Origin: Desulfurivibrio alkaliphilus AHT 2
GTDB taxonomy: Bacteria; Desulfobacterota; Desulfobulbia; Desulfobulbales; Desulfurivibrionaceae
Assembly (NCBI RefSeq): GCF_000092205.1
Contig: NC_014216.1
Span: forward strand, 372,001-436,000
Direction: 5' to 3'
Length of the DNA stretch: 64,000 nt
The notes under the pieces were generated by a model. That model was not told the origin of the DNA, did not search any database, and worked only from the letters and a program-made list of their open reading frames with translations. Of this stretch, positions 672-16,643 are shown one piece after another (within the stretch, counting starts at the first letter, position 1; the number at the start of each line of letters is the position of its first letter). The translations under genes were made by a program, and so were the position numbers.

Positions 672-1238
672 ATGATGCCGACACCACACCCCCAACCCGG
701 CCGCCGCTTGGCCGCTGTGCTTGAGGAATTGGCCAGCCCCGAGCACTATCTCTTTACCTCGGCCGATCTGCGCGGAGCCCTGCCGGAAATCAGTGCCGGG
801 GCCTTCAAAACCCTGCTGAGCCGGGCCGAAAAGCGCGGCCTGCTGCGGCGGATCTGTCGCGGCCTCTACCTTTACCCCCGGGTTGATTATCCCCGCGATC
901 TGCTGCTGTTCCACGCCGCCGCCCGGCTGCGGGCCGATGCCTTCAACTATATCAGCCTGGAGACCGCCCTTAGCGATGCCGGGGTGATCTCGCAGATTCC
1001 GCTCAACTGGATCACCCTGATGAGTTCCGGCCGGCGCAACATCGTGCGCTGCGGCCATTTCGGCACCATCGAGTTCGTCCATACCAGCCGGCAGCCGGCC
1101 ACTCTGGCCAATGAACTGACCTATGACCCCCGCTGCCGGCTCTGGCGGGCCTCGGTGGCCCTGGCCCTGCGGGACATGCGCGCCACCCGGCGCAATCTCG
1201 ACCTGATCGACGAGGAGCTTACCCGTGAATCTGCTTGA
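672..1238 (+). CDS. abiEi: Type IV antitoxin AbiEi-family transcriptional regulator
   Basis: This 188-residue protein matches the AbiEi antitoxin architecture. An N-terminal winged-helix DNA-binding region (about 1-75, including FKTLLSRAEKRGLLRRICRG and the LYLYPR turn) precedes a C-terminal domain that neutralises the toxin. It lies directly upstream of, and overlaps by 14 bp, an AbiEii-type nucleotidyltransferase, the usual order. The product should repress its own operon through the inverted repeat at 645-661 and counteract the downstream toxin. Two consecutive in-frame ATGs (672, 675) occur; the first is used here. The pair may be a phage-defence or addiction module. The assignment rests on the combination of gene order and motif resemblance. 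Confidence 0.85.
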   Translation: MMPTPHPQPGRRLAAVLEELASPEHYLFTSADLRGALPEISAGAFKTLLSRAEKRGLLRRICRGLYLYPRVDYPRDLLLFHAAARLRADAFNYISLETALSDAGVISQIPLNWITLMSSGRRNIVRCGHFGTIEFVHTSRQPATLANELTYDPRCRLWRASVALALRDMRATRRNLDLIDEELTRESA

Positions 1239-2130
1239 ACAACTGGCGGGGGAAGCCCTCCGCCACCGTCCGGAACTCTCTTTGCTGCGGCCGGCGGTGG
1301 AAAAGGAACTGCTGCACCACGATATCCTGCGCCTGCTTAATGAAGCCGGTCTGCTCTCCGGCCTGACCTTTATCGGCGGCACCTGCCTGCGGGCCTGCTA
1401 CGGTGCCGAACGCCTCAGCGAAGACCTCGACTTCAGCGGCGGCCACGACTTCCGCCGGGAAAGCATGGCCGGCCTGAAAGCAGCCCTGGAAAACGGCCTA
1501 GGTGCCAAGTACGGCCTTGAGGTGGAGGTAAAAGAGCCGGTGCGCGAGGCGGGCAACACCGATACCTGGAAGATCCGCATCATCACTCGCCCGGCCCGCC
1601 GGAACCTGCCGGCCCAGCGGATCAATATCGATATCTGCGCGGTGCCGAGCCACGACCGCCGACCGCTGATGCTGCGCAACCATTACGGGGTGGAAATGGG
1701 CACCTCCGGCCTGATCCTCCAGGCCGAAAGTCGCGAGGAAATTCTGGTGGACAAACTGCTGGCCCTGGCCCTGCGCCCCAACCGGGTCAAGAACCGCGAC
1801 CTGTGGGATATCGTGTGGCTCAAGCGCCACAATATCAACTTGTCCGCCGCCCTGCTCGCCCGCAAGATCGCCGACCGCCGTCTGGCCCCAGAAGATTTTC
1901 TTAACTACCTGGAGCAGCGGCAGCAACTGCTGGCCGGCGGCCCCGATCCCCGCCGGGACTTTATCCACGAAATGACCCGCTTCCTGGCGGCCGCCACCGT
2001 CGAGCAAACCGTGGCCAGGGAAGATTTCTGGTCCTATCTGCTCGACTCCATCGCCGACGAATGCCGACAGGCACGCACCCTGCTGGAAAACTTACCCCAA
2101 GCCGATAATGGCGTCCCCCGCGACTCTTGA
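1225..2130 (+). CDS. abiEii: AbiEii/AbiGii-family nucleotidyltransferase toxin
   Basis: This is a 301-residue nucleotidyltransferase of the AbiEii/MenT superfamily. The catalytic signature GGTCLRACYG followed by RLSEDLDF is intact (residues about 52-72), as are the ESREEILVDKLLAL segment and the later basic RVKNRDLWD motif, which are conserved in the family. Known members inactivate tRNA or otherwise transfer nucleotides to stop growth; the substrate here is unknown. A GTG start at 1225 lies inside the antitoxin gene, so the two are probably translationally coupled. Nothing suggests inactivation. The pair sits at the border of a mobile-looking island next to selB. Confidence 0.88.
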   Translation: MNLLEQLAGEALRHRPELSLLRPAVEKELLHHDILRLLNEAGLLSGLTFIGGTCLRACYGAERLSEDLDFSGGHDFRRESMAGLKAALENGLGAKYGLEVEVKEPVREAGNTDTWKIRIITRPARRNLPAQRINIDICAVPSHDRRPLMLRNHYGVEMGTSGLILQAESREEILVDKLLALALRPNRVKNRDLWDIVWLKRHNINLSAALLARKIADRRLAPEDFLNYLEQRQQLLAGGPDPRRDFIHEMTRFLAAATVEQTVAREDFWSYLLDSIADECRQARTLLENLPQADNGVPRDS

Positions 2131-2169
2131 CGTTGCGGAATCTGCCGCCGCCCTGGCCCTGCAAATTAG

Positions 2170-2187
2170 CGTACGATTTGGCGTACG
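2170..2187 (+). promoter_or_regulatory. Candidate toxin-antitoxin operator (paired CGTACG palindromes)
   Basis: Two identical CGTACG palindromic hexamers occur at 2170-2175 and 2182-2187, 12 bp apart, just upstream of the AGGAGG ribosome site (2191-2196) of the small toxin-antitoxin operon. Such spacing would place two half-sites on one DNA face, as in many antitoxin operators. No convincing -10/-35 pair is visible around them. Operator function is an inference. Confidence 0.35.
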
Positions 2188-2201
2188 CAAAGGAGGCGCC
2201 A

Positions 2202-2285
2202 ATGAGCACAATTACTGCAAAGGAATCGATCTTTGAAGGCATGAAGACGCCGGTTGCAGAGTGCGATGAGGAATTGGACTGGTGA
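2202..2285 (+). CDS. 27-residue mini-ORF, candidate antitoxin or leader peptide
   Basis: An ATG at 2202 preceded by a perfect AGGAGG at the right distance opens a 27-codon frame that begins MSTITAKESIFEGM and ends in an acidic tail EELDW. Its TGA overlaps the GTG start of the Txe/YoeB toxin (GTGA at 2282-2285), the coupling expected of an antitoxin-toxin pair. It is far shorter than Phd/YefM antitoxins (about 80 residues) and lacks a visible DNA-binding domain. It might be a truncated antitoxin, a miniature neutralising peptide or a translational leader. No homologue is recognised with certainty. Confidence 0.55.
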   Translation: MSTITAKESIFEGMKTPVAECDEELDW

Positions 2286-2545
2286 ACTGGAAGCTGGTCT
2301 ATACCAAGCAGGCCCCAAGAGATGCCGAAAAGCTTGCCGCTGCCGGCTTGAAACCGAAAGCGCAGCAATTACTTGACATCCTTGTCGACAATCCCTTCCA
2401 AAATCCGCCGCCATGCGAAAAGCTCGTCGGTGACCTGGCCGGTGCCTGTTCACGGCGCATCAACATCAAACATCGGCTGGTCTATCAAATTCTCGAAGGT
2501 CTGCGCACCGTGAAGGTGCTGCGGATGTTGACCCACTACGAATAA
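2282..2545 (+). CDS. Txe/YoeB-family mRNA interferase toxin
   Basis: This 87-residue protein has the Txe/YoeB fold signature. It carries the C-terminal run RRINIKHRLVYQI followed by VKVLRMLTHYE, and Glu46, Arg65 and a C-terminal His85-Tyr86 correspond to the catalytic residues of Escherichia coli YoeB (E46, R65, H83, Y84). Members cleave mRNA on the ribosome. The GTG start overlaps the stop of the preceding mini-ORF by 4 bp. No full-length antitoxin of the usual YefM type is adjacent, which is odd because an unneutralised intact toxin should be lethal. The mini-ORF or an unlinked antitoxin must provide protection, or expression is very low. Confidence 0.88.
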   Translation: MNWKLVYTKQAPRDAEKLAAAGLKPKAQQLLDILVDNPFQNPPPCEKLVGDLAGACSRRINIKHRLVYQILEGLRTVKVLRMLTHYE

Positions 2546-2892
2546 CCTCAGCCAGCTTATCCTGGCGGAGCGAGGGGTTATGTCAGCGGTAACCTGAAAA
2601 TGCATGAAAACGGGCCTACGGATTCAAGTCGTATGATATGCTGAAAATGGCGCTTTATCATTCGTTTGGCGATTTGCCTACGCCAAAATTTACCCACAGA
2701 TTTTGCTGAGGAGCCCTTCTCTTTTTTCTGCGGTGATTATTTTTTGCTTGACACTTTGTTGTTAGGCGATTTCAGTGGCGCCTGTTGCCCTTTTGTGAGT
2801 TAGGCTTGTTGGGGGATGTCGGCGTGGTTCTCTTTTTCTGAAACAGTCAATGGCTCGTTTTAGTGTTCTTTTATCATCTCGGGGGGGGGATA
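2546..2892 (+). other. AT-richer intergenic leader of the giant RHS gene, with G9 tract
   Basis: I see no gene in this 347-bp stretch. A TTGACA hexamer lies at 2748-2753 but no good -10 follows at 17 bp. A run of nine G residues (2881-2889) lies immediately before the tandem ATGs at 2893 and 2896, where the Shine-Dalgarno sequence should be. An upstream in-frame GTG at 2863 would read through the G tract. A segment at about 2662-2688 resembles the operator region at 2170-2190 in part. Confidence 0.5.
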
Positions 2893-5800
2893 ATGATGAA
2901 ATCAAGACAACGCGCTTTCAAGTGCAAGTCATGGTTGGCTCCGCTGCTGCTGTTGGTGGGGATTCTACTCCTTGTCGGCGTTTCGCATACGGCCACGGAC
3001 CTTGTTCTTGGTCCCGAACCCACCGCCATTGCCATTCATCCGGATTCGGAGATGGCGATTATTTCCCACGAGAAGGACAACCGGGTTACCCTGCTCAACC
3101 TCAACAATGTTGAGGAAAAGGTGACCCTTCCCGTTGGCCGCGCTCCCATGGGGGTGGCGATCAACGAGGCCACCAATACCGGACTGGTGTGTAACAGCAA
3201 GGATAAGAATGTCTCGGTTATTGATCTTGAATTTTTTCGCGAACTCTACTCGATGGAGGTGGGCGGCCGGCCTCGGGCGGTGGCGGTGGATTCCAGCCGG
3301 AACCGGGGGATGGTGGTCAATCGCCAGGATGGCACCGTTTCCGAGCTCGATCTCTATCTCGGCCGCGAGGATGCGGTCATTCCGGTGGGCCGGCTGCCCG
3401 TGGCCATCGCCGTGGATCCGGGCCTGAATTATGCCGTGGTGGTCGATGATGTCAGTCCGGCCCGCGACACGGTTGCGATTATCGACCTCGACAGCCGTCA
3501 GGTCATCAACAAGGTGGAAGTGGGCCGGGGCCCGGTGGCGGTGGATATCGACCCCGACAGCCATCTCGCCGTGGTGGCCAACGAGCGCAGTTCAAGTCTC
3601 ACCGTAATCGATCTTGCCACCTGGGAATCCCGCCACATTCCCCTGGAATACCGGCCGGTGGATGTGGCCACAAGCCGGGTAACCGGCCAGGCTCTGGTTC
3701 TCTCAAGGCTGAACAACCTGCTGCTGGCGGTGGACCTTGCCACCGGCGAGATCGGCAAGACCTACCCGGTAAAACACCGGGCCGCGGCCCTGGCCGTCTC
3801 GCCTTACAGCAACCGGGCCGCCGTGGTCGACGCCTCGACCAACAGCCTCTCCCTGATCCAGCTCGACAACCCGGTCCCCATCCTCCAGGAGGTCGCTCCA
3901 GCTTCGGCCGATCTCTTCAGTGTGCCCAAAACCGTCACCCTTGTCGGCCACCGCTTTCTTAAAAGCGCCGAGGTGCGGTTGGAAAAGGACGGCGCCATCC
4001 TGCAGCTTCCGTTTCGCTTCATCGATCACCGCACCCTGGAAGTCGATCTGCCCGACGAGGTAAGGAGCCGGCCCGGCCAGTATCTCTTTCGGGTGGTAAA
4101 CCCGGAACCGGTCGGCGGCAGCAGCGACCCGGTCATGTTCGAGGTCCGCAATGTCATCAAGCTCGAGATCACCAGCCCCGCCGACCAGAGCGAGGTGGAT
4201 GTCGCCGGTCTGACGGTAAGCGGCACGGCCATTTCCGGCTACCCCATTACTTCGGTGATGGTAAACGAGGTGGCCGCCGTTTACGAAAACGGAATATTCA
4301 CCGCCGAGATCGTGCTCGCGCCCGGGGAAAACAGCATTACCGCCGTGGTCCAAGATCAGGGCGGCGATACCGCCTCTAGCGCCATCACGGTAAATTACAC
4401 GCCCAAGGGACCACCCGACCCGGTGGAGGAGGCGCCGCCGCTGAACACCACCGAGGCCACCGACATCGCCGCCGCCACCGAGTTTCTCTACACCGGCCCC
4501 AACCCGGTCCAGACCGGAGTCGAGCCGGAAACCATCGAGGCCAGGAGGGTGGCAGTTCTGCGCGGCAAGGTGCTAAACCGCAATAATGTTCCCCTTGCCG
4601 GGGTGACCGTCACCATACTCAACCACCCCGAATACGGCCGGACCCTGAGCCGGGCCGACGGCCTGTTCGACCTGGCGGTCAACGGCGGCGGCCTGGTCAC
4701 CATCAACTACGAAAAGGAAGGCTACCTGCCGGTGCAGCGCCAGGTCCAGACCCCCTGGCGGGATTACGTTTGGGCTCCCGACGTGATCATGATCCCGCTG
4801 GACGGCAGGGTTACGGTTATCGACCTGGCGGCGGCCGAGACCATCCAGGTGGCCCAGGGCAGCGAGGTGGCCGACGAAGACGGCGCTCGCCAGGCCACCC
4901 TGCTTTTCGCCCCCGGCACCACCGCCGAGATGGTCCTGCCCGACGGCTCCAGCCAGCCGCTTTCCACCATCAGCGTGCGGGCCACCGAATACACCGTGGG
5001 CGACAACGGCCCGGAAGCGATGCCGGCCGTCCTGCCGGCCAACATCGCCTACACCTACTGCGTCGAACTGAGCGTGGACGAGGCCATGGCCGCCGGCGCC
5101 ACCGAAGTGCGCTTCAGCCAACCGGTCACTTTCTACCTGGACAACTTCATCGATTTCCCGGTGGGCGGGATCGTCCCCTCCGGTTATTACGACCGGGTCC
5201 GGGGCGTCTGGGTGCCGTCGGAAAACGGCCGGGTGGTAAAGGTAATCGGCATCAACAACGGCCTGGCCGAACTGGACATCTCCGGCAACGGCCAGGCGGA
5301 CAGCGCCGAGGCCCTGGCCGAACTGGGTGTTACCACAGAGGAGCGGCAAAACCTGGCCGAACTGTATGAACCCGGCAAAAGCCTCTGGCGGGTGCCGATC
5401 TCCCACTTTACTCCCTGGGACTGCAACTGGCCATACGGCCCGCCGCCGGATGCCGTGCCGCCGCCCTACGATCCGCCCCGGCCGGAGGATCGGGACAAGC
5501 CCGACGACCCCACCGAGTGCCGGGGCTGCGTTATCGAGGCTGAAAGCCAGGTGCTGGGAGAGTCGATCCCGATCACCGGCACGCCACACACCCTCAACTA
5601 CCGCTCCGACCGGGTACCAGGCTATACCGGAGGACGCACCATCGAAATCCCCTTGAGCGGCTCCTCGGTGCCTGGCTCGCTTAGGCGTATCGAGCTTGAA
5701 ATCCGGGTGGCGGGCCAGGTCCATCGCGCCAGCTTCGCCCCTCTGCCCAACCAGCGCACCACCTTCACCTGGGACGGCAAGGACGGCTATGGTCGGCCGG

Positions 5801-8800
5801 TGCAGGGTGCGGTTGAACTCACCTATCACCTGCGCTTTGTCTATCCGGTGGTTTACCTCGGTCCCGCCAATTTCCGCGCCGCTTTCGGCCGGGCCGGGGG
5901 CGCGGCCATTGGGGGCTCTCGCGGGGCTGCGGTTCTGGATTTTTCCAGGATGCATACCGTTACGTTGACCGGGTCTGTTGTCGACATCAGCGGTGTCGGT
6001 CGCTGGTCCCTCGACCGGCACCATTTTTACAGCGCTAAAGACAACACCACTTACCGAGGTGACGGCACTCGGCAGAGCGCGACGATTCTTGGGCCAATCA
6101 TTGAGACGATTGCTGGCACTGGCTCTTGGGGGCATTCCGGCGGCCTCGCCGTCAACGCACGACTTTATCGGCCAAGTTGTGTCTCCATTGACCCCGACGG
6201 CACCATATATATTGCTGACACAGGAAATCATCGTATCCGATCGGTGGGAACTGACGGAATTATTACCACCCACGCCGGCTCCGGCTTCCGTGCTGGTGGC
6301 CTCGGTGATAGTGGTTACTCCGGCGACGACGGTCCGGCCGTCAACGCACGGCTTAATTCGCCAACTGATATCGCCCTTGGCCCCGACGGCAGCATCTATA
6401 TTGCTGACTCAATAAACCACCGCATCCGCCGGGTGGGAACGGACGGCATTATCACCACCGTCGCTGGTACCGGCCCGACCGGTTGGTGGAGCGGGGGGTT
6501 CAGCGGCGACGGCGGCTCGGCCGTCGAGGCACGGCTTGATAGACCACATGCTGTCGCCATCGGCCCCGACGGCAGCATCTATATTGCTGACACATATAAC
6601 CACCGCATCCGCCGGGTGGGAACGGACGGCATTATCACCACCATCGCCGGTACCGGCTACCGGGGTTTCAGCGGCGACGGCGGTCCGGCCGACGAGGCAC
6701 GGCTTTTTGGGCCAATTGCTGTCGCCATCGGCCCCGACGGCAGCATCTATATTGCTGACACATATAACCACCGCATCCGCCGGGTGGGAACGGACGGCAT
6801 TATCACCACCGTGGCCGGTACCGGCAGTTTGGGTTATAGCGGCGACGGCGGCCCGGCCACCGAGGCGAGCTTTAGCACTCCAAGTGGTATTACGTTCGGC
6901 CCCGACGGCAGCCTTTATATCGCGGCCAACCACCGCATCCGCCGGGTGGGAACGGACGGCATTATCACCACCATCGCCGGTACCGGCTACCGGGGTTTCA
7001 GCGGCGACGGCGGTCCGGCCGACGAGGCACGGCTTGGACCAAGAGGTGTCTCCCTCGGCCCCGACGGCAGCATCTATGTTGCTGACTCAAACAACCATCG
7101 TATCCGCCACATTCGGCAACCTATAACTTCTTTAGCTTATGACGAAATTCTGATTGCCGCCGCCGATCATGACGAATACTACGTTTTCACACCCAGCGGT
7201 CGCCATCTGCGCACCTTGGACAGCCTGACCGGCACCACGCGCAAGACCTTTTCCTATGACGAACAGGGCCGTCTTGTCCGCCTGGAAGATGGTGACGGCA
7301 ACGCCACACTTATTGAACGAAACAGCGACGGCGACCCCACCGCCATCATTGCCCCCGATGGCCAGCGCACCGAATTGGCGCTGGACGCTAACGGCTACCT
7401 CGCCTCGGTCACCAACCCCGCCGGCGAAGCCTATCGCCTGGCCCACACCCCGAGCGGGCTCCTGACCAAAGTCATCAAACCGACCGGCGCGAAGTACACC
7501 TACAATTACAACGCTGTTGGCCGGCTTACCCACACCAACGATCCCGACGGCGGCGGCTGGACCATCGCCCGCACCAAAACCGGCACCGGCACCGGCGGTC
7601 GTATGACCAGCGCCGAGGGTCGGACTTGGAGTTTCGACGTCGATCGCCTGAGTAAGACGGAACTGCTGCGAACCTCCACCAATCCCGACGGCGCCGTTTC
7701 CACCCGGCGCATTACCACCACCGATTCGGAAATAACCGAGGTGGCCAATACCGCTGACGGCACCGTGCGCACCTTGCGCAAAGGCCCGGACCCCCGGATG
7801 GGGATGAGCGCGCCGGTGCTGGAATCGGCAATCACGACCCTGCCTTCCGGCCTGCAATCCACGATCAATTTCGCTCGGCTGGCAAATCTTGAGGACCAGG
7901 ACGACCCCCTCAGCCTGGTAAGCCTCACCGACACGGTCAACATCAACGGCCGCACCCTCACCAGCGTCTATCAGGCGGCGAGTCGCACTTACACCACCAC
8001 CACCACCGCCGGCCGAACGAGTTCGCTGGTGCTCGATGCCAATGGCCGGATCAGCCAAAGCCGGCCAGCCGGTCTCCTGGAGGTGGGCTACCATTACGAC
8101 CTCCGGGGGCGGTTGAGTTCCATCGCTCAAGGGGATGGCGCCCAGGGGCGCTACCTGGACTTCACCTACGACAGCCAGGGCTATCCCGCCGCCATTAGCG
8201 ACGGGCTGGGCGTTCTGGCCGCCTACGAGTACGATTTGGCGGGCCGGGTCACCCGGCAGGAGCTGGCCGACGGCCGGGAGATCCGCTACGGCTATGACGC
8301 CAACGGCAACCTTACCGCCATCACCCCGCCGGGCCGCAGCCCCCATCTCTTCACCTACACCGCCACCGACCGGCAGCAGGAGTACCTGCCGCCGGCAGCG
8401 GGGGCGCAACCCGCCGCCACCCGTTACGCCTACAACCTCGACGGCGAGTTGACCCAAATCACCCGCCCCGACGGCCAGACCCTGGAACTGGGCTATTCAG
8501 GCTGCTGCGGCAAGCTCGCTTATCTCGACCTGCCTCACGGCCGAATCGATTACTCATATCATTCCGCAACCGGCCGGCTCAGCGGGATCACCACCCCGGA
8601 GAACAATACCCTGGCCTTCACTTACGACGGCTTCCTGCCGCTGACCCAGTCCTGGACCGGCGAGATCAACGGCAGCGTGGCCCGGGGCTACGATAACAAT
8701 TTCCAGCTCCAGTCCCTGAACGTAAACGGCCAGACCATCACCTACGGCTACGACAGCGACGGCCTGCCCATCCAGGCGGGCGATCTCACCCTGGCGCGCG

Positions 8801-10215
8801 ACCCCGCCAACGGCTTTCTCACCGGCACCAGCCTGGCCGGGGTAGCCACCACCCAAGCCTACAACGGTTTCGGCGAAATGACCGCCTTCAGCGCCTCGCA
8901 TGACGCCACCGAGCTGTTCAGCACCAGCTTCAGCCGGGACCAGCGCGGCCGGATCACCGAAAAGACCGAAACCATCGCCGGGACAACCACCACTTTCGGC
9001 TATCTCTACGATGAGGCCGGCCGCCTGATCCGGGTAACCCAAGACGGCGCTATAGTTGAATACACCTATGACCAAAACGGCAACCGCCTGCAGCACAGCG
9101 CCGGCGGCACCACCATCACCGGCAGCTACGAAGCCCAGGACCGGATGACCGCCTACGGCAACGCCACTTATCAGTACACCGCCAACGGCGAACTGCTCAG
9201 GAAAACCCAAGGCACCCAGGTAACCAGCTACACCTATGACGTCCTCGGCAACCTCAAGGCCGTAAATCTGCCCGATGGCCGCAATATCGAATACATCATC
9301 GACGGCAGCAACCGCCGGATCGGCAAGAAGATCGACGGCGTCCTGGTTCAGGGCTTCCTTTACCAGGACCAACTCAACCCGGTGGCCGAACTCGACGCCA
9401 ACGGCCAGGTGATCAGCCGCTTCATCTACGCCAGCCGAGCCAATGTACCGGACTACCTGATCAAAAACGGCACCACCTACCGGATCATCACCGATCACCT
9501 GGGCAGCCCTCGGCTGGTGGTCAACACCAGCACCGGTGAAATTGCCCAAAGAATCGATTATGATGAATTCGGCAACGTCCTCCAGGACACCAACCCCGGC
9601 TTCCAGCCCTTCGGTTTCGCCGGCGGCCTCCACGACCGGGACACCAACCTGACCCGCTTCGGCGCCCGCGACTACGACCCCCAAACCGGCCGCTGGACCG
9701 CCAAGGACCCAATCCTGTTCGCCGGCGGAGACACCAACCTGTACGGGTATGTCCTGAATGATCCAATTAATTGGATCGATCCAGAGGGGAAAATTGGGAT
9801 TGCCGGAGCAGCTGTCGGTGGCGTGATAGGCGCAGTATCTGGCGCACTTGGCGCTTATACATCAGGAGGAAATAGCTGGGATATTGCCTCTGCGGCCTTT
9901 ACTGGCGGTTTGGGGGGCGCAGTCTATGGTTTTTTGCCAGGTGCCGGACTGCTTGCACATATCGGGAAGGGTGCGGCAATCGGTGGAATTCAAAATTTTG
10001 GCGCCCAATTTATGGGTATTTTGAATGACCCCTGCCAGAGATTTAACTACGGCTCGCTTGCCGGATCCATTTTAGGTGGAGCAATTGGCGCTGGAAGGGC
10101 GAATGCTGTTAAGGGTTTGGATAGTAGTGCGCTAGGGCAAATTAGCCAAGGCATTCTAGCACTGGGTCCGAGTTTGGCTTTCGGTGCCCTAGGGACCTCG
10201 CTGGGTAATTTGTAA
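2893..10215 (+). CDS. Giant secreted YVTN/NHL/RHS-repeat protein with polymorphic glycine-rich tip
   Basis: From tandem ATGs at 2893/2896 this encodes about 2,440 residues. A signal peptide (basic start, then the LLLLVGILLLVG core) is followed by YVTN-type propeller repeats (about 33-330), an IPT/TIG-like domain (about 330-420) and a glucodextranase-B-like Ig domain (about 420-503). Then come a carboxypeptidase-regulatory-like fold (about 553-623), six NHL repeats (about 1067-1411) and YD/RHS repeats (about 1435-2295) ending in the RHS-associated core (DHLGSPRLV, then [13 protein letters not shown] and NWIDPEG). After IDPEG, composition changes abruptly to a 141-residue glycine-zipper-like hydrophobic tip. 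RHS cores encapsulate C-terminal toxins, so the tip is inferred to be a membrane-acting effector. An AT-rich two-TM gene follows 4 bp later. A start at GTG 2863 is possible but would destroy the signal peptide N-terminus. Confidence 0.88.
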   Translation: MMKSRQRAFKCKSWLAPLLLLVGILLLVGVSHTATDLVLGPEPTAIAIHPDSEMAIISHEKDNRVTLLNLNNVEEKVTLPVGRAPMGVAINEATNTGLVCNSKDKNVSVIDLEFFRELYSMEVGGRPRAVAVDSSRNRGMVVNRQDGTVSELDLYLGREDAVIPVGRLPVAIAVDPGLNYAVVVDDVSPARDTVAIIDLDSRQVINKVEVGRGPVAVDIDPDSHLAVVANERSSSLTVIDLATWESRHIPLEYRPVDVATSRVTGQALVLSRLNNLLLAVDLATGEIGKTYPVKHRAAALAVSPYSNRAAVVDASTNSLSLIQLDNPVPILQEVAPASADLFSVPKTVTLVGHRFLKSAEVRLEKDGAILQLPFRFIDHRTLEVDLPDEVRSRPGQYLFRVVNPEPVGGSSDPVMFEVRNVIKLEITSPADQSEVDVAGLTVSGTAISGYPITSVMVNEVAAVYENGIFTAEIVLAPGENSITAVVQDQGGDTASSAITVNYTPKGPPDPVEEAPPLNTTEATDIAAATEFLYTGPNPVQTGVEPETIEARRVAVLRGKVLNRNNVPLAGVTVTILNHPEYGRTLSRADGLFDLAVNGGGLVTINYEKEGYLPVQRQVQTPWRDYVWAPDVIMIPLDGRVTVIDLAAAETIQVAQGSEVADEDGARQATLLFAPGTTAEMVLPDGSSQPLSTISVRATEYTVGDNGPEAMPAVLPANIAYTYCVELSVDEAMAAGATEVRFSQPVTFYLDNFIDFPVGGIVPSGYYDRVRGVWVPSENGRVVKVIGINNGLAELDISGNGQADSAEALAELGVTTEERQNLAELYEPGKSLWRVPISHFTPWDCNWPYGPPPDAVPPPYDPPRPEDRDKPDDPTECRGCVIEAESQVLGESIPITGTPHTLNYRSDRVPGYTGGRTIEIPLSGSSVPGSLRRIELEIRVAGQVHRASFAPLPNQRTTFTWDGKDGYGRPVQGAVELTYHLRFVYPVVYLGPANFRAAFGRAGGAAIGGSRGAAVLDFSRMHTVTLTGSVVDISGVGRWSLDRHHFYSAKDNTTYRGDGTRQSATILGPIIETIAGTGSWGHSGGLAVNARLYRPSCVSIDPDGTIYIADTGNHRIRSVGTDGIITTHAGSGFRAGGLGDSGYSGDDGPAVNARLNSPTDIALGPDGSIYIADSINHRIRRVGTDGIITTVAGTGPTGWWSGGFSGDGGSAVEARLDRPHAVAIGPDGSIYIADTYNHRIRRVGTDGIITTIAGTGYRGFSGDGGPADEARLFGPIAVAIGPDGSIYIADTYNHRIRRVGTDGIITTVAGTGSLGYSGDGGPATEASFSTPSGITFGPDGSLYIAANHRIRRVGTDGIITTIAGTGYRGFSGDGGPADEARLGPRGVSLGPDGSIYVADSNNHRIRHIRQPITSLAYDEILIAAADHDEYYVFTPSGRHLRTLDSLTGTTRKTFSYDEQGRLVRLEDGDGNATLIERNSDGDPTAIIAPDGQRTELALDANGYLASVTNPAGEAYRLAHTPSGLLTKVIKPTGAKYTYNYNAVGRLTHTNDPDGGGWTIARTKTGTGTGGRMTSAEGRTWSFDVDRLSKTELLRTSTNPDGAVSTRRITTTDSEITEVANTADGTVRTLRKGPDPRMGMSAPVLESAITTLPSGLQSTINFARLANLEDQDDPLSLVSLTDTVNINGRTLTSVYQAASRTYTTTTTAGRTSSLVLDANGRISQSRPAGLLEVGYHYDLRGRLSSIAQGDGAQGRYLDFTYDSQGYPAAISDGLGVLAAYEYDLAGRVTRQELADGREIRYGYDANGNLTAITPPGRSPHLFTYTATDRQQEYLPPAAGAQPAATRYAYNLDGELTQITRPDGQTLELGYSGCCGKLAYLDLPHGRIDYSYHSATGRLSGITTPENNTLAFTYDGFLPLTQSWTGEINGSVARGYDNNFQLQSLNVNGQTITYGYDSDGLPIQAGDLTLARDPANGFLTGTSLAGVATTQAYNGFGEMTAFSASHDATELFSTSFSRDQRGRITEKTETIAGTTTTFGYLYDEAGRLIRVTQDGAIVEYTYDQNGNRLQHSAGGTTITGSYEAQDRMTAYGNATYQYTANGELLRKTQGTQVTSYTYDVLGNLKAVNLPDGRNIEYIIDGSNRRIGKKIDGVLVQGFLYQDQLNPVAELDANGQVISRFIYASRANVPDYLIKNGTTYRIITDHLGSPRLVVNTSTGEIAQRIDYDEFGNVLQDTNPGFQPFGFAGGLHDRDTNLTRFGARDYDPQTGRWTAKDPILFAGGDTNLYGYVLNDPINWIDPEGKIGIAGAAVGGVIGAVSGALGAYTSGGNSWDIASAAFTGGLGGAVYGFLPGAGLLAHIGKGAAIGGIQNFGAQFMGILNDPCQRFNYGSLAGSILGGAIGAGRANAVKGLDSSALGQISQGILALGPSLAFGALGTSLGNL
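6090..7125 (+). repeat. Six NHL-propeller coding repeats, partly near-identical at DNA level
   Basis: Six tandem coding units (about 105-190 bp each) encode IYIADTYNHRIRRVGTDGII-type blades with GFSGDGGPA linkers. Units at about 6600-6705 and 6931-7034 share about 100 bp that read as identical, including silent positions, and the unit at 6731-6800 copies the one at 6562-6635. The identity implies recent duplication or gene conversion within the gene. One unit (about 6905-6935) has lost four residues of the blade motif. Confidence 0.85.
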
Positions 10216-10219
10216 GCTT

Positions 10220-10717
10220 ATGCTTAATGTACCTGAAAAACAAATATGGGTTGATAACAGGCTAGGAGCCAACGGGCGATGGGCATGGTATGTACCGCTT
10301 TTTATTTTGGTATTGTTTTATCAACTTTTCATTGCCATAAAATTTCTATTTTATAGAGGAATATATGGAGAAGCTCCCTTGGTTGCAGTAGTTGGCATAT
10401 TAGTTCTATTGTTCTTATTGATAGGAGCTATAAATTTTTGCCGCGATAGCCCAAGAATTGCGCAATCAATAATTTTTGAAAATGAAAAAATTGTCATTAG
10501 GTTCTATCTTGGGAGGCAACAGATATATAAAAGATCAGAAATAGAATTAATAAAAAATATTAAAATTTATCCATATTTCAGGATAATAACATTATTTGAC
10601 TTAAAAAAAGACAATTATAAGATCAAAACTAAAGAAGGCGATTATTTTTACATAAGTGGTGCAATGCCTATGAATTCATCATTGCTCCAACTGCTATCTC
10701 GTAAAATTGAAAACTAA
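10220..10717 (+). CDS. AT-rich two-TM protein, candidate immunity protein for the first RHS tip
   Basis: This 165-residue protein has two hydrophobic helices (about 22-43 and 52-74), then a soluble C-terminal domain of alternating beta-like segments (EKIVIRFYL, YKIKTKEGDYFYI) resembling a bacterial PH-like fold. It begins 4 bp after the RHS stop codon. Its base composition is strikingly AT-rich compared with the GC-rich RHS core, as is usual for horizontally moving toxin-tip and immunity cassettes. No family is recognised. The immunity role is inferred from position, composition and membrane topology, which would suit protection against a membrane-active toxin. Confidence 0.72.
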   Translation: MLNVPEKQIWVDNRLGANGRWAWYVPLFILVLFYQLFIAIKFLFYRGIYGEAPLVAVVGILVLLFLLIGAINFCRDSPRIAQSIIFENEKIVIRFYLGRQQIYKRSEIELIKNIKIYPYFRIITLFDLKKDNYKIKTKEGDYFYISGAMPMNSSLLQLLSRKIEN

Positions 10718-10742
10718 TTTTGTCGGGGCATAAGGGGCAAAC

Positions 10743-11621
10743 ATGACAAACACGCCTCACCAAGCCTGCTTAGACGCACCAGCCGCCACCCGTTACGCCT
10801 ACAACCTCGACGGCGAGTTGACTCAAATCACCCGCCCCGACGGTCAGACCCTGGCTCTGGGCTATTCAGGCTGCTGCGGCAAGCTCGATTACCTCGACCT
10901 GCCCCACGGCCGGATCGATTACGCCTACCACCCCGCAACCGGCCGGCTCAGCGGGATCACCACCCCGGAAAACAACACCCTGGCCTTCACTTACGACGGC
11001 TTCCTGCCGCTGACCCAGTCCTGGTCCGGCGAGATCAACGGCAGCGTGGACCGGGGCTACGATAACAACTTCCAGCTCCAGTCCCTGAGCGTAAACGGCC
11101 AGGCCATCACCTACAGCTACGACAGCGACGGCCTGCCCATCCAGGCGGGCGATCTCACTCTGGCGCGCGACCCCGCCAACGGCTTTCTCACCGGCACCAG
11201 CCTGGCCGGGGTAGCCACCACCCAAGCCTACAACGGTTTCGGCGAAATGACCGCCTTCAGCGCCTCGCATGACGCCACCGAGCTGTTCAGCACCAGCTTC
11301 AGCCGGGACCAGCGCGGCCGGATCAGCGAAAAGACCGAAACCATCGCCGGCATCACCACCCACTACGTCTACCATTACGACCAGGCCGGCCGCCTGATCC
11401 AGGTAAACAAAGACGGCGGCACCGCCGCCACCTACACTTACGATGACAACGGCAACCGCCTGCAGCACAGCGCCGGCGGCACCACCATCACCGGCAGCTA
11501 CGACGCCCAGGACCGGATGACCGCCTACGGCAACGCCACTTACCAGTACACCGCCAACGGCGAACTGCTCAAGAAAACCCAAGGCGCCCAGACAACCAGA
11601 TACACCTACGACGTCTGTTAA
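10743..11621 (+). pseudogene. Second RHS tip cassette, left part (interrupted by IS21-family element)
   Basis: After a short unrelated start (MTNTPHQACLDAP) the frame becomes nearly identical to the region of the first RHS gene beginning at about 8410, and continues until the IS insertion at 11616. It lacks signal peptide, propellers and the upstream half of the RHS shell, so it looks like an orphan cassette able to recombine into the main gene. The frame stops six bases into the IS. Removing the IS and one copy of the 5-bp duplication restores YTYDVLGNLK exactly as in the intact gene, joining this part to 14272-15174. An ATG at 10743 exists but whether it is translated is unknown. Confidence 0.85.
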
Positions 11622-11664
11622 TGATCACCCTAATGGAGCCACCCATGATCAGCTAATGGAGCCA
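11622..11664 (-). repeat. Left-end transposase-binding repeats of the IS (two copies)
   Basis: Two copies of the terminal motif occur at 11622-11641 and 11646-11664. The second is exactly TGATCAGCTAATGGAGCCA, the reverse complement of the right-end repeat unit. Confidence 0.85.
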
Positions 11665-11699
11665 CCCTCAAGTGGCCATTTTGGGGCTCCGGACGGTTT

Positions 11700-12485
11700 T
11701 TAATTTTTGCCTTTTTTAACGTTTTCGGCAACCTCGTTTTTGGGGTATTTGGGCAGCGGCCTGGCCGCTCGAAAACTTTTGCCGTCCAAGAGCAGGGAGT
11801 AAGCGCCGTGGCGGATGCGGTCGATGGTGGCCGAGCCCAGCAGTTTATTGGGGAAGGCGTCGCCCCACTCGTTGAGATCCAGGTTGCTGGTGATGATGGT
11901 GGAACGGCGCTCGTAACGTTCTCCAATCAGATCATGGATATCCTCATCCTGGGGGGTACGCAGGGGTTTGAGGCCAAAGTCGTCAATGATCAGCAGGTCG
12001 ACCTTGGCCAGGGCGTTAAGCCGCCGTTCATAGGCGTTGGTGGCGCGGGCGGCGTGGAGTTGGCCCAGCATCTTGGTCTGGGTGGTGAAGAGCACATCGT
12101 AGCCCATTCTGACCGCGCAGTGGCCGATGGCCTGGGCGATATGGCTCTTGCCGGTGCCGCAGGGGCCGACCACCAGCAGGTTGGCGCCCTCTTCCAGGAA
12201 ACGGCAGGTGGCCAAGTCCATGATCAGGGCGCGGTTGATGTTGGGGTTGAAGGAGAAGTCGAACTCCTCCAGGGTTTTGTGGTTACGGAAGTTGGCCCGG
12301 CGGACACGCATGGCGAACTTGCGCTGGGAACGGCGGGCGACTTCGTCCTGTACCAGCATGGCCAGGAAGTCGGTGTAGGCCAGCTTTTCCTCGATGGCCT
12401 GGCGGTTTCTGGCTTCCAGGGAATCAAGGATGCCGGAGAGTCGCAACTGTTTGAGCATGGGGATCAGTTCGGGCATGGGGTTCAT
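11700..12485 (-). CDS. istB: IS21-family transposition helper ATPase IstB
   Basis: A 261-residue AAA+ ATPase of the DnaC-like IstB family. It has Walker A GPCGTGKS and Walker B DLLIIDDFGL, with the N-terminal alpha-helical region (LRLSGILDSLE, RNRQAIEEKLAYTDFL) typical of IstB. It works with IstA, stimulating transposase assembly and target choice through ATP-dependent remodelling of target DNA. It starts 15 bp after the istA stop with a good AGGAGG-type ribosome site, so the two are one transcription unit. Length and motifs are complete. Confidence 0.95.
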   Translation of the reverse strand: MNPMPELIPMLKQLRLSGILDSLEARNRQAIEEKLAYTDFLAMLVQDEVARRSQRKFAMRVRRANFRNHKTLEEFDFSFNPNINRALIMDLATCRFLEEGANLLVVGPCGTGKSHIAQAIGHCAVRMGYDVLFTTQTKMLGQLHAARATNAYERRLNALAKVDLLIIDDFGLKPLRTPQDEDIHDLIGERYERRSTIITSNLDLNEWGDAFPNKLLGSATIDRIRHGAYSLLLDGKSFRAARPLPKYPKNEVAENVKKGKN

Positions 12486-12500
12486 TAAGCTTCCTCCTTA

Positions 12501-14009
12501 TCAGTGAAAAAGTTGTTGGCGCTGGAAGCGGCCCTGGCCGCGGTAGGCCACGCCGGCCGCCACCGGTTCCGTTTCCGGGGGCTGTTGGTCAAGCCCCTTG
12601 CCGAGGATGGTTTTGACCGTGATGTATTGGGGGCTGTCGTAGATCAGCGCCCGGTGACAGGCGGCTTCCAGCCGCTCCGGGCCGTATTTGCCGGCCAACC
12701 GGAGCACCCCCTGGGCCGCCCGGAGATGATCAACCACCCGGTGGCTCAACAGCCGCTTGACCAGGTGGTGGCAGCGGGGACCGATCTCACCGGCCTGTTT
12801 GAGGCACCACTGGGGATCGCGCATCAGGTAGGCGACGGCGTCCGGTGGTAGGTGGTCGACACAGGTGGCCTTCTGGCCGGGTCGGGCACAGCGGGGATGG
12901 ACCGCCACCTGTTGATGCTGGTGGTAGATCTTGACGGTGGTTTCCGTCGCCTTGACCCACAGCTTTTTGTGCACCAGCTTGAAGGGGGCGGAGTAGTAGG
13001 CTTTGTCGAACTGGAGATGGCAGTTGCCGTGCAGCTTGTGCTCGGCCCAAACCGCCAACTCCGGGGCCACGGCGGGCAAAGGTTTAAGAAAAGCCTTCTC
13101 CGCCTCGGCGAACATGACCAGCGGCTTTTGCTTGGTGGTGCCGTGGCTACGGTTGCCGGCCGTTGCCAGCACCCACTCCTTAAGCTGACGATTGGCGTCG
13201 ACCAAGCTACGGAACTCGCGCAAGGGCAGGAAGTTGTTTTTGACGTATTTGACGCCGGATTCCACCCGCCCCTTCATCTGGGGTTGGCGCGGCGGGCAGG
13301 GCGAGATCAGAAAGCCGTAACCTTCGGCAAACTCGGCGTAGGAACGGTTCACCGCCGGATCGTGCCAGCAGGCCTTGATGATCCCGGCCTTGAGGTTGTC
13401 GATCATCACCTTGGCCGGCACCCCGCCGAAGAACTCGAAGGCCCGGCGGTGACAACCCAGCCAGGTCGCCACCTTCTGGTCGCGGACGATCTCGGCGTAC
13501 TGGTGCCGGCTGAAGGCCAGGGTCATGACGAACACCCAGGTGGAAAACGGCTTGCCGGTCTGGGAATCAAGCAGCTTGGGGCCGGAACCGAAGTCCACCT
13601 GGGCCGCTTCGCCGGGAGCAAAGTCCAGCATTACCGTGGCTTGAGGGTTGTCCTCTTTGAGGGTCTTAAGAAAACGTCTGACCGAGGAGTAGCTGCCGGT
13701 AAAGCCATGCTCACGCACCAGGGCCTGGTACATGGTGGTGCCGTTGATCCCGGCCGCCTGCCAGGTCTTGAGCTGCTCCTGGTACGGCAGCAGCATCGGC
13801 ACCGCCGATTCGCCCGGGGCCGGCAGCGCGAGCACCTTGGCCAGCTCGGCATCATCCGGCAACTCTTGGGCGGGATCGAGCCAGCCCTGCTGCTGAGCCA
13901 AGGCCCGTAACTGCGCGGCCTTGCGGCGGCCCATCAGCTTAGCCTTGGCGATCTGGCGGTCGGATTGAACCGACCGCATTTGGGTAAGAACTTGACGGTA
14001 TTGAAACAT
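12501..14009 (-). CDS. istA: IS21-family DDE transposase IstA
   Basis: This transposase has about 502 residues when started at the ATG at 14009, which has AGGAGG at 14016-14021, six bases upstream. A longer reading from 14030 would bury this ribosome site in the coding region. The N-terminus has the helix-turn-helix region (IAKAKLMGRRKAAQLRAL). The rve integrase core carries the catalytic acids in MLDFAPGEAAQVDFGSG, KVMIDNLKAG and MKGRVESGVKYVKNNF (the DDE triad). A C-terminal Mu-transposase-like beta-barrel follows. It catalyses strand transfer of the element using the terminal repeats at 11622-11664 and 14121-14260. No frame damage is visible. Confidence 0.95.
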   Translation of the reverse strand: MFQYRQVLTQMRSVQSDRQIAKAKLMGRRKAAQLRALAQQQGWLDPAQELPDDAELAKVLALPAPGESAVPMLLPYQEQLKTWQAAGINGTTMYQALVREHGFTGSYSSVRRFLKTLKEDNPQATVMLDFAPGEAAQVDFGSGPKLLDSQTGKPFSTWVFVMTLAFSRHQYAEIVRDQKVATWLGCHRRAFEFFGGVPAKVMIDNLKAGIIKACWHDPAVNRSYAEFAEGYGFLISPCPPRQPQMKGRVESGVKYVKNNFLPLREFRSLVDANRQLKEWVLATAGNRSHGTTKQKPLVMFAEAEKAFLKPLPAVAPELAVWAEHKLHGNCHLQFDKAYYSAPFKLVHKKLWVKATETTVKIYHQHQQVAVHPRCARPGQKATCVDHLPPDAVAYLMRDPQWCLKQAGEIGPRCHHLVKRLLSHRVVDHLRAAQGVLRLAGKYGPERLEAACHRALIYDSPQYITVKTILGKGLDQQPPETEPVAAGVAYRGQGRFQRQQLFH

Positions 14010-14120
14010 CTCGAACCTCCTGTTGGCCATCGGCTATCCCTCCTGAAAATGGGTTTTTCAGGGGGATATAGCCGATCCGCAGAAAGTCCGGGACCCGTTT
14101 ATGAACTTAAGGGAAGGGGT

Positions 14121-14260
14121 GGCGCCATTAGCTGATCCGCAAGTGGCTCCATTAGCTGATCACGCCATGGCTCCATTAGCTGATCACGCCATGGCTCCAT
14201 TAAGCTGATCCTTAACTGGCTCCATTAGCTGATCACGAAGTGGCTCCATAGGGGTGATCA
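14121..14260 (+). repeat. Right-end transposase-binding repeats of the IS (six copies)
   Basis: Six copies of TGGCTCCATTAGCTGATCA or close variants start at about 14121, 14144, 14168, 14192, 14217 and 14241, mostly 24-25 bp apart. The last merges into the outer inverted repeat. IS21-family ends normally carry two or three such sites, so six is a large array. Confidence 0.85.
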
Positions 14261-15174
14261 TTAACAACGTCCTCGGCAACCTCAAGACCGTAAATCTGCC
14301 CGACGGCCGCAATATCGAATACATCATCGACGGCGGCAACCGCCGGATCGGCAAAAAGATCGACGGCGCCCTGGTCCAGGGCTTCCTCTACCAGGATCAG
14401 CTCAACCCGGTGGCCGAACTCGACGCCAACGGCCAGGTAATCAGCCGCTTCATCTACGCCGCCCGGGCCAACGTCCCCGACTACCTGATCAAAAACGGCA
14501 CCACCTACCGGATCATCGCCGATCACCTCGGCAGCCCCCGGCTGGTGGTCAACACCGCCACCGGTGAAATTGCCCAAAGAATCGATTATGATGAATTCGG
14601 CAACGTCCTCCAGGACACCAACCCCGGCTTCCAGCCCTTCGGTTTCGCCGGCGGCCTCCACGACCGGGACACCAACCTGACCCGCTTCGGCGCCCGCGAC
14701 TACGACCCCCAAACCGGCCGCTGGACCGCCAAGGACCCAATCCTGTTCGCCGGCGGGGATACCAACCTGTACGGCTATGTCCTTAATGATCCGATTAATT
14801 GGATTGATCCGGAGGGACTCTGGTACATTGATCTGAATTTGACAGGATCAGCTAGAGGATCTCTTGGACCAGGTGGTACAATAGGACTCCAAATAGGAGC
14901 TTCTGGAATAAATTTTTATTACGGATTTGGTCTGGGAATGGGCGCTGGAGTCTCTGCAACGTTAAATTTAGGAGAGATGACCAATTGTAGCAGTGTGGAT
15001 GTCGGGGTTACTTTCTCAGGTGGTTACCCCGTGTTAGGTGTGCCGATTGGAGCCCACGGAAATATATCTACCGATGTGGAGGGTAATATAACCCCTGACT
15101 TTGGCGTCGGTTTAGGATTAGGCTTTGGAGTTGCTGCCGGCGTGACACATACAATTCCTGTTTTGAGATGGTAA
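14254..15174 (+). pseudogene. Second RHS tip cassette, right part with alternative glycine-rich tip
   Basis: From 14272 this continues the interrupted cassette: the RHS core ([29 protein letters not shown]) is nearly identical to 9241-9788. It diverges immediately after IDPEG into a different 120-residue AT-richer tip. That tip is dominated by glycine and small hydrophobics ([20 protein letters not shown], later [13 protein letters not shown]) and resembles a beta-rich or pore-like domain. The GTG at 14254 is supplied by the IS end, so a tip-bearing fragment could be translated from IS-derived sequence, but no good ribosome site is seen. A small membrane protein follows 12 bp downstream. Toxin function is inferred only from the RHS-core/tip arrangement. 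Confidence 0.82.
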
Positions 15175-15186
15175 GGGTATTAACTT

Positions 15187-15444
15187 ATGGCCCCTTTAAC
15201 AGAAAAATTAATTCCAGGAATCGTTGCTTTATTGTCAGGAATTATCCTTACAATTTATTGGAGAAGTGTCATTGAGGCGGTTTTAGCTTCTCATTCGAGA
15301 TTTTGGGTAGAATTGCTAAAACTGGACAATGGCGTAAACACCTTTAGCCGCCTTTTTCTTACCACCTTCGTTTTATTGCTAGGGGTTGGCCTTATATTTG
15401 CGGGATTATTGCTACTTTATAAGTACTGGTCTGCAACTCATTAA
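15187..15444 (+). CDS. Small two-TM protein, candidate immunity protein for the second RHS tip
   Basis: An 85-residue protein with two clear hydrophobic helices (about 9-31 and 58-79) joined by a short polar loop. It starts 12 bp after the stop of the second RHS tip, the same arrangement as the 10220-10717 gene after the first tip, and is likewise AT-richer than its surroundings. No family is recognised. The immunity role is inferred from position and from the parallel with the first module: both partners are two-TM membrane proteins. Confidence 0.65.
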   Translation: MAPLTEKLIPGIVALLSGIILTIYWRSVIEAVLASHSRFWVELLKLDNGVNTFSRLFLTTFVLLLGVGLIFAGLLLLYKYWSATH

Positions 15445-16137: not shown

Positions 16138-16643
16138 ATGCATAAAAGGAAGCTCTATCTTGATAAAATATCGCCGTTTATTGACAAGCCGCTAATTAAG
16201 GTCGTGTCCGGGTTGCGCCGGTGCGGGAAGAGCACCTTCATCAAAATGGTGATGGAACGACTTGCTGAAAAAAAGGTACCGCCGCGAAATATTGTCCATA
16301 TCAACATGGAGCTGGTGGAGTTTGAGTTTATCACCGATCATCGGGAACTTTACCGGTTTGTGAAGGGGCGTTTGCCGGCGGGCGGCGGTCGGAAATACCT
16401 GTTTATCGACGAGGTGCAGGAGATTCCGGGCTGGGAAAAGGCGGTGGGTTCGCTAATTGTGGTAGCATCACCAGCGCCAAGAAGATTGCCGATTACCTGA
16501 AGTCCCAGCGGCTGAAATGCGGGGTCGAAACCGTGCAGAACTACATCGGCTATCTGCAGGATGCCCATCTGGTCCATAAAGCGCGGCGGTTCGATCTCAA
16601 GGGCAAGCGGCATCTGGAATTTTACGAGAAAGATGGGGACTGA
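16138..16643 (+). pseudogene. Remnant of AAA/DUF4143-type ATPase
   Basis: The first part (ATG at 16138) encodes the start of an AAA-family ATPase of the DUF4143 group: VVSGLRRCGKST is the Walker A and KYLFIDEVQEIPGWE the Walker B region. After about residue 107 most of the protein is missing. A different frame then continues with GSITSAKKIADYLKSQRLKC and YIGYLQDAHLVHKARRFDLK, a conserved C-terminal region of the same family, ending at a TGA at 16641. Intact members are about 400 residues, so a large internal deletion plus a frameshift have inactivated it. The 120-residue frame up to 16500 could still be translated but would be non-functional. Confidence 0.82.

What the first reader, a model, noticed from the sequence alone, without database searches (positions are those of the whole stretch)
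2893..15444. Two RHS tip/immunity modules with glycine-rich, membrane-type tips
After the identical NWIDPEG core, two different tips occur: a glycine-zipper-like hydrophobic 141-residue domain and a 120-residue Gly-rich beta-like domain. Neither shows a nuclease, deaminase or ADP-ribosyl motif. Each is followed within 12 bp by an AT-rich two-TM protein. The shared membrane character of both partners suggests pore-forming or envelope-targeting effectors, less common than nuclease tips, and both tips may be undescribed families.
Basis: partly seen in the sequence, partly recalled or inferred. Interest (0 to 1): 0.68.

Follow-up and report, generated by a model that had tools for sequence, protein, structure and literature searches.

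The report
Bacterial teneurin toxin with spare tip
A sulfur-metabolising soda-lake bacterium carries a large secreted toxin shell, related to the teneurin proteins of animal nerve cells, with a probable membrane-attacking tip and matching protection gene, followed by a silent spare tip with its own protection gene that a mobile element has split from its start.

Summary
The two tip/partner modules are real, but they are not two equal RHS genes. The first (2863-10215, 2450 aa) is a complete bacterial Teneurin-like protein (TLP): TTR, FN-plug, NHL and YD-shell match, and it scores 1525 bits to the solved Bacillus TLP. The second is a displaced "orphan" cassette. It ends in tip2 plus a small two-TM gene. 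TLPs are already described as polymorphic toxins, and a hydrophobic, membrane-permeabilising TLP tip (BiTLP) has been shown experimentally. Neither tip nor partner matches Pfam, NCBIfam, PHROGs or PADLOC. Tip1 has one distant relative, in another TLP locus; tip2 has none that is convincing. Both tips are among the most hydrophobic of 83 TLP tips. Two-TM partners are not special to pore-formers: 19 of 44 other TLP-tip partners have two or more TM segments, against 24 of 315 control genes. Best reading: tip1 is a membrane-depolarising toxin with an inner-membrane immunity protein, and tip2 is a stored alternative. New families within a known kind.

The parts
2863..10215 (+). Teneurin-like protein (main toxin carrier), 2450 aa from GTG 2863 or 2440 aa from ATG 2893: N-terminal hydrophobic (signal-like) segment, beta-propeller, Ig-like, TTR, FN-plug, NHL repeats, YD-shell, DPxG autoprotease motif, tip1
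   Evidence: Pfam TTR_TEN1-4 1.3e-27, FN-plug 1e-3 (below cut-off), TEN_NHL 4e-45, TEN_YD-shell 2e-36; 1525 bits to PDB 9pt5/9ifo Teneurin-like protein
5527..5529 (+). Codon for Cys889 at the FN-plug autocleavage position (Ser724 in BiTLP)
   Evidence: alignment A1: Ser in 17 of 18 TLPs, Cys only here; alignment to BiTLP
9700..9789 (+). Core end with bipartite aspartyl-protease motif (KDPI...NWIDPEG); predicted cleavage that frees tip1
   Evidence: aligned to BiTLP 2083-2143 at 74.9 bits; cleavage after this motif shown for BiTLP (PMC13018210)
9790..10212 (+). Tip1: 141-aa Gly/Ala-rich hydrophobic toxin candidate, predicted all-alpha with five TM-length helices (low confidence)
   Evidence: no Pfam/NCBIfam/PHROGs match; distant relative L078:15518-15967 (34% identity; 0 of 500 shuffles as good)
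10220..10717 (+). Imm1: 165-aa candidate immunity protein, two TM segments (25-43, 53-71) plus C-terminal soluble part, GC 31%
   Evidence: 4 bp after tip1 stop; no family match
10778..11615 (+). Orphan core fragment, 5' part: homologous to 8409-9243 of the main gene, 92.4% DNA identity, no N-terminal part
   Evidence: dN/dS 0.38, frame open
11616..14266 (-). IS21-family insertion sequence, 2651 bp, inverted repeats TGTTAATGATCACCC, 5-bp target duplication ACGTC, repeated GGCTCCATTAGCTGATC units near the ends
   Evidence: istA and istB by NCBIfam
12501..14030 (-). istA, IS21 transposase
   Evidence: NF033546 1e-76
11700..12485 (-). istB, IS21 helper ATPase
   Evidence: NF038214 7e-79
14267..14817 (+). 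Orphan core fragment, 3' part, up to NWIDPEG: 94.9% identical to 9239-9788 of the main gene; the likely recombination substrate
   Evidence: dN/dS 0.11
14818..15174 (+). Tip2: 118-aa Gly-rich tip, predicted all-beta (pLDDT 46), silent orphan toxin candidate
   Evidence: no family match; no convincing relatives
15187..15444 (+). Imm2: 85-aa two-TM candidate immunity protein, GC 38%
   Evidence: 12 bp after tip2 stop; no significant family match

Best explanation
The locus is a bacterial Teneurin-like polymorphic toxin with one loaded and one stored tip. The TLP has an N-terminal Sec-type hydrophobic segment and is probably exported and displayed. Its YD-shell encloses tip1, and the core cuts itself at the DPEG motif so that tip1 can be released (inferred from BiTLP and other RHS proteins). 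Once delivered to a neighbour, tip1 (five predicted TM-length Gly/Ala-rich helices) inserts into the inner membrane and depolarises or permeabilises it. Imm1, an inner-membrane protein with two TM segments and a soluble part, blocks it in the producer. Tip2/imm2 is a displaced orphan cassette: it has no evident start or export signal, and an IS21 insertion has cut off the 5' part of its core, so it is silent now. The 550 bp of 95% identical core that remain next to tip2 would let homologous recombination put tip2 on the full-length carrier. Tip2 is probably also an envelope-acting toxin; its activity is less certain. Shown here: domain architecture, cassette structure, IS insertion, hydrophobicity, partner topology statistics. 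Inferred: export, cleavage, release, membrane insertion, immunity, recombination.
For: TLP domains and PDB match. The core-end motif aligns with BiTLP. Identity between the copies ends exactly at DPEG, the module boundary. The core copies diverged under purifying selection (dN/dS 0.11-0.38), with no stops in the compared pieces. Extra core-tip junctions occur in 15 of 62 TLP loci/strands examined, this one included. A Salmonella rhs locus with a 522-bp, 95% identical main/orphan overlap was reported to recombine and deploy the orphan toxin (PMC3967940). BiTLP-CTD is hydrophobic and, when exported, made E. coli permeable to propidium; TLPs carry downstream immunity genes (PMC13018210). Tip hydropathy ranks 2nd and 4th of 83. 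Polytopic partners are enriched at TLP tips, odds ratio 9.2, P=1e-8. Analogous membrane-depolarising toxins have membrane immunity proteins: EsxX/TspA/Tse5, CDI ionophores with 72-100-aa two-helix immunity proteins, Tse5-CT on an Rhs shell.
Against: No homology between tip1 and any tested pore-former; the apparent extension of the BiTLP match into tip1 adds only about 7 bits. Structure models of both tips are of low confidence (pLDDT 42 and 46), so no fold search was meaningful. Glycine-zipper spacing in tip1 is no more than composition gives. Co-occurrence of each tip with its partner could not be tested: no relative of imm1 or imm2 was found, and the only tip1 relative lies at a contig end. 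The same Gly/Ala-rich composition could belong to a translocation segment rather than a toxin.
Confidence: 0.6

Rival explanations
1. Tip1 is not a pore-former but an envelope enzyme or inhibitor domain, or mainly a membrane-translocation segment, and the membrane partner merely marks the place of action.
For: Polytopic partners also accompany TLP tips that look, by motif, like phospholipase A2 (L046), L,D-transpeptidase/Tlde1 (L037, L112) and TseH/NlpC-like (L109) enzymes.
Against: Tip1 has five predicted TM-length hydrophobic Gly/Ala-rich helices, no enzyme family match, and the immunity gene starts 4 bp after its stop, so no domain is missing downstream.
Confidence: 0.2
2. Tip2 belongs to the Gly-rich beta tips that resemble outer-membrane beta proteins (the 'OMP' class of TLP CTDs) and acts by inserting beta structure into the target envelope.
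For: Low-confidence all-beta model. Gly-rich beta-like tips on other TLPs (L056, L076, L087) and on an ordinary Rhs protein (L143) form a real family (0 of 100-500 shuffles), and tip2 scores z=4.1-4.8 against L076. OMP-like CTDs are reported for Paenibacillus oryzisoli and Desulfosudis oleivorans TLPs (PMC13018210).
Against: No profile match to that family, z only 1.1-2.6 against its other members, and the start of the L076 alignment is out of register with the cleavage site. Tip2's partner is a two-TM protein, those of L056, L087 and L143 one-TM anchored. An apparently unrelated tip (L082) reaches z>5 against tip2 as well.
Confidence: 0.35
3. The whole second cassette is a decaying pseudogene with no role; imm2 is kept, if at all, only as protection against outside toxins.
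For: No evident start or export signal, core split by IS21, no relatives of tip2 in the same genus, family or order sample.
Against: Both remaining pieces and imm2 are open, and the low dN/dS of the cores and single clean IS suggest recent loss. Orphan cassettes are common in TLP loci and can be reactivated in Salmonella.
Confidence: 0.35
4. The TLP works mainly as a surface adhesion or signalling protein, as in animals, and the tips are not toxins.
For: N-terminal propeller, Ig-like and TTR modules; the authors of PMC13018210 leave a communication role open.
Against: Polymorphic tips replaced exactly at the cleavage motif and paired with small AT-rich genes are the signature of toxin/immunity modules; several TLP tips are toxic in E. 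coli (PMC13018210).
Confidence: 0.07

Closest known systems
Bacillus inaquosorum Teneurin-like protein BiTLP (PDB 9ifo, 9pt5; PMC13018210)
   Same: Same TTR/FN-plug/NHL/YD-shell architecture, core-end cleavage motif, hydrophobic C-terminal tip with predicted TM segment
   Different: BiTLP tip is about 93 aa and not detectably homologous to tip1; its FN-plug cleavage residue is Ser, Cys here; no orphan cassette is mentioned in the main text
Salmonella Typhimurium rhs main/orphan locus STM0291/STM0292 (PMC3967940)
   Same: Full-length carrier with immunity gene, followed by a start-less core fragment with another tip and its own immunity gene; about 0.5 kb of 95% identity between them
   Different: Carrier here is a TLP; the orphan core is additionally split by an IS21 element; recombination is not shown here
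Tse5-CT of Pseudomonas aeruginosa (PMC9637101, PMC10684867)
   Same: Pore-forming tip of similar size encased in an Rhs shell, with membrane-bound immunity protein Tsi5
   Different: Tse5 is a T6SS effector; no sequence similarity of the tips was found
Glycine-zipper depolarising toxins EsxX, TelE, TspA (PMC12744356)
   Same: Gly-rich hydrophobic toxin domain; membrane immunity proteins act against the external toxin
   Different: T7SS substrates with other N-termini; tip1's zipper spacing is not above composition; no family match
CDI ionophore toxins and 72-100-aa two-helix CdiI proteins (PMC11630599)
   Same: Imm2 (85 aa, two TM) has the size and layout of these immunity proteins
   Different: Those toxins are alpha-helical with entry domains, whereas tip2 looks beta; different delivery protein

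Membership tests
Bacterial Teneurin-like protein (TLP) | Superfold of FN-plug, NHL and YD-shell, preceded by TTR | tested here: met
   TTR, NHL and YD-shell over Pfam cut-offs, FN-plug below its cut-off (19.8 vs 27.8 bits), but the whole TTR-to-FN-plug region aligns to BiTLP 361-934 at 652 bits and NHL-YD at 727 bits
Bacterial Teneurin-like protein (TLP) | DPxG core-end autoprotease motif followed by a variable tip | tested here: met
   KDPI...NWIDPEG, 74.9 bits to BiTLP 2083-2143; tips differ exactly after it
Bacterial Teneurin-like protein (TLP) | Small immunity gene immediately downstream | tested here: met
   10220-10717, 4 bp gap; neutralisation itself not testable here
Bacterial Teneurin-like protein (TLP) | Conserved Ser at the FN-plug autocleavage site (reported as highly conserved, not as a criterion of membership) | tested here: not met
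   Cys889 in place of Ser; Ser in 17 of 18 aligned TLPs. A Cys may keep the function
Rhs-type orphan toxin/immunity cassette | Downstream fragment sharing the carrier's core, lacking its N-terminus, with its own tip and immunity gene | tested here: met
   92.4% and 94.9% identical core pieces, then tip2 and imm2
Rhs-type orphan toxin/immunity cassette | Can recombine with the carrier | not testable with these tools
   needs passage or strain comparison; 550 bp at 94.9% identity remain
Glycine-zipper depolarising toxins (EsxX/TelE/TspA) | Extended glycine zipper | tested here: inconclusive
   7 motifs in tip1, shuffled mean 4.7, P=0.19
Glycine-zipper depolarising toxins (EsxX/TelE/TspA) | LXG or similar T7SS N-terminus | tested here: not met
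   carrier is a TLP
Glycine-zipper depolarising toxins (EsxX/TelE/TspA) | Membrane depolarisation | not testable with these tools
   bench assay needed
OMP-like TLP tip class / Gly-rich beta tips (L056, L076, L087, L143) | Sequence relation of tip2 to the family | tested here: inconclusive
   hhalign probability 1.9%; z 4.1-4.8 to L076 but 1.1-2.6 to others
OMP-like TLP tip class / Gly-rich beta tips (L056, L076, L087, L143) | Confident antiparallel beta fold | tested here: inconclusive
   six predicted strands, pLDDT 46
CDI ionophore immunity (two-helix CdiI) | 72-100 aa, hydrophobic, two TM helices | tested here: met
   imm2 is 85 aa with TM-like segments 11-29 and 59-77; layout only, no homology shown
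CDI ionophore immunity (two-helix CdiI) | Cognate alpha-helical ionophore toxin after a CdiA entry domain | tested here: not met
   tip2 is predicted beta and sits on a YD core

The most novel reading that the evidence does not exclude
Tip1/imm1 and tip2/imm2 found two new toxin/immunity families: tip1 a five-helix Gly/Ala-rich ionophore, tip2 a small Gly-rich beta toxin that inserts into the target envelope and is blocked by a two-helix inner-membrane protein. The host could switch its teneurin from one to the other by recombination past a transposon.
Probability: 0.35. Interest if true: 0.55.

Novelty: new member of a known kind. Interest (0 to 1): 0.4.

Why it matters
Bacterial teneurins are the likely source of the animal teneurin receptors, and their toxins are only beginning to be tested. 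This locus adds a complete example in a sequenced, cultured haloalkaliphile, with two tips that no family library names. It also shows that the main/orphan tip storage known from enteric Rhs loci is frequent in teneurin loci (15 of 62 examined), and that TLP tip partners are strongly enriched in polytopic membrane proteins, which points to the envelope as a usual target of this toxin class.

Tried and rejected
Profile searches of tips and partners in Pfam, NCBIfam, PHROGs and PADLOC gave nothing significant (tip1 was not sent alone to PADLOC but as part of the whole TLP). PDB searches of the tips alone gave nothing for tip1 and only antibody chains for tip2. Tip and partner searches of plasmids, phages and viral contigs: no match. 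Genome searches of order and phylum for tip1 (order only), tip2 and imm1 gave only weak matches; those whose context was read (L005/L047, L006, L007, L131, L132, L137-L139) lie outside any RHS core or in spurious frames. Idea that tip1 is homologous to the BiTLP tip: rejected, the extension past the core adds about 7 bits. Idea that tip2 is a plain member of the L056/L076/L087 Gly-rich beta family: not established. Idea that two-TM partners by themselves indicate pore-formers: rejected by the TLP-wide count. Structure-library search not run: both models are of low confidence.

Full report
WHAT IS THERE. The window lies in a single-contig genome of 3,097,763 bases. Size and GC (60.4% in the window) agree with the published Desulfurivibrio alkaliphilus AHT2 genome (3,097,763 bp, 60.29%; PMC5016858), so the host is very probably that haloalkaliphilic sulfidogen; this is an inference from size and composition.

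The first gene (GTG 2863 or ATG 2893 to 10215) encodes 2450 or 2440 residues. Pfam finds teneurin TTR, NHL and YD-shell domains, with FN-plug below its cut-off. The best solved relatives are the Bacillus Teneurin-like protein structures 9pt5 and 9ifo (1525 bits, E=0), ahead of animal teneurins at about 345 bits and T6SS Rhs shells. The RHS core ends in KDPI...NWIDPEG. The pattern occurs only twice in the genome, and the Rhs core profile also finds only these two places.

After the first motif come 141 residues (tip1), a stop, 4 bp, and a 165-codon gene (imm1). Then follows a second, incomplete copy. Its core is homologous to the main gene from 10778 (92.4% over 838 bp) and again from 14267 to 14816 (94.9% over 550 bp), followed by 118 different residues (tip2), a stop, 12 bp and an 85-codon gene (imm2). 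Between the two core pieces sits an IS21-family element, 11616-14266, with istA and istB on the minus strand, matching inverted repeats and the 5-bp duplication ACGTC. The flanks were not joined. The second copy lacks the N-terminal three quarters of the carrier, so it has no export signal and no evident native start. It is an orphan cassette, not a second RHS gene.

COMPARISON ACROSS TLP LOCI. The window's TLP is absent from the sampled same-genus and same-family genomes, while 18 of 395 sampled phylum genomes (this one included) have one. A scan of the GTDB contigs with the alignment of the TTR-FN-plug region (A1) found 313 relatives, of which 80 loci were kept. From these and the phylum loci I extracted 85 core-tip junctions and the genes that follow. 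Tips are extremely diverse. Fifteen of 62 loci/strands, this one included, hold two or more core-tip junctions, so orphan cassettes are usual. Recognisable tips include Hint, TseH-like, Tlde1/YkuD, phospholipase A2 and glucosaminidase domains. Of 44 close partners outside the window, 19 have two or more TM-like segments, against 24 of 315 control genes (Fisher P=1e-8). TM segments were called by a simple hydropathy threshold and the control genes are mechanically called ORFs, so the ratio is approximate. This says that many TLP tips act at the envelope and that their partners sit in the membrane; it does not single out pore-formers.

THE TIPS. Tip1 and tip2 rank 2nd and 4th in hydropathy among 83 TLP tips. 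No library names either tip or either partner. Tip1 has one supported relative, an orphan tip next to a Competibacteraceae TLP (L078; 34% identity, 0 of 500 composition shuffles as good). AlphaFold2 with these two sequences gives five helices of 19-24 residues, at low confidence (pLDDT 42). Tip2 is predicted all-beta (pLDDT 46). Other TLPs carry a genuine family of Gly-rich beta-like tips (L056, L076, L087; also L143 on an ordinary Rhs protein), but tip2's relation to it is not established.

HOW IT PROBABLY WORKS. Published work shows that TLPs are polymorphic toxins whose shell encloses the tip, that BiTLP is cut at the core-end DPxG motif and in the FN-plug, that the hydrophobic BiTLP tip makes E. 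coli permeable to propidium when exported, and that downstream genes act as immunity genes (PMC13018210). By that model tip1 is released from the shell in or at a neighbour and disturbs its inner membrane, and imm1 protects the producer. Gly-rich or hydrophobic depolarising toxins with membrane immunity proteins are well documented (EsxX, TspA, Tse5; CDI ionophores; Tse5-CT in an Rhs shell). For the second cassette the precedent is the Salmonella main/orphan rhs locus, where recombination across 522 bp of 95% identity deploys the orphan toxin (PMC3967940). Here 550 bp at 94.9% identity remain directly upstream of tip2, on its side of the IS, so the insertion does not remove that possibility. 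The core copies show dN/dS of 0.11-0.38, as expected if both were once part of functional carriers.

WHAT IS NEW. The kind of system is known. New here are two unnamed tips with two unnamed partners, the IS21-split orphan in a teneurin locus, the count of orphan cassettes and polytopic partners across TLP loci, and a Cys in place of the otherwise conserved Ser at the FN-plug cleavage site. Pore formation remains an inference; neither tip has a confident structure or an experimentally tested relative.

Noticed in passing
window 5527-5529 (residue Cys889 of the TLP): The residue aligned with the self-cleavage Ser724 of BiTLP is Cys here but Ser in all 17 other aligned TLPs; two neighbouring cysteines conserved in many others are also missing in this protein.
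   Followed up: partly
window 672-2545: Upstream of the TLP lie an AbiEi/AbiEii type IV toxin-antitoxin pair and a YoeB-like toxin gene, so the TLP sits beside other conflict genes.
   Followed up: partly
window 6138-7108: NHL-repeat part of the TLP consists of tandem DNA repeats, 70-78% alike, probably a source of repeat-number variation.
   Followed up: no
window 16138-16500: Start of an AAA_14-type ATPase gene whose open frame ends after 120 codons; probably truncated or frameshifted.
   Followed up: no
L143 (positions in reverse complement: tip ends near 1914): An ordinary Rhs protein carries a tip of the same Gly-rich beta-like family as TLPs L056/L076/L087, followed by a one-TM anchored small protein: the family is shared between Rhs and TLP carriers.
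   Followed up: partly
L040, L045, L067, L088, L109, L112: TLP loci with three or four successive core-tip junctions, i.e. arrays of stored tips.
   Followed up: partly
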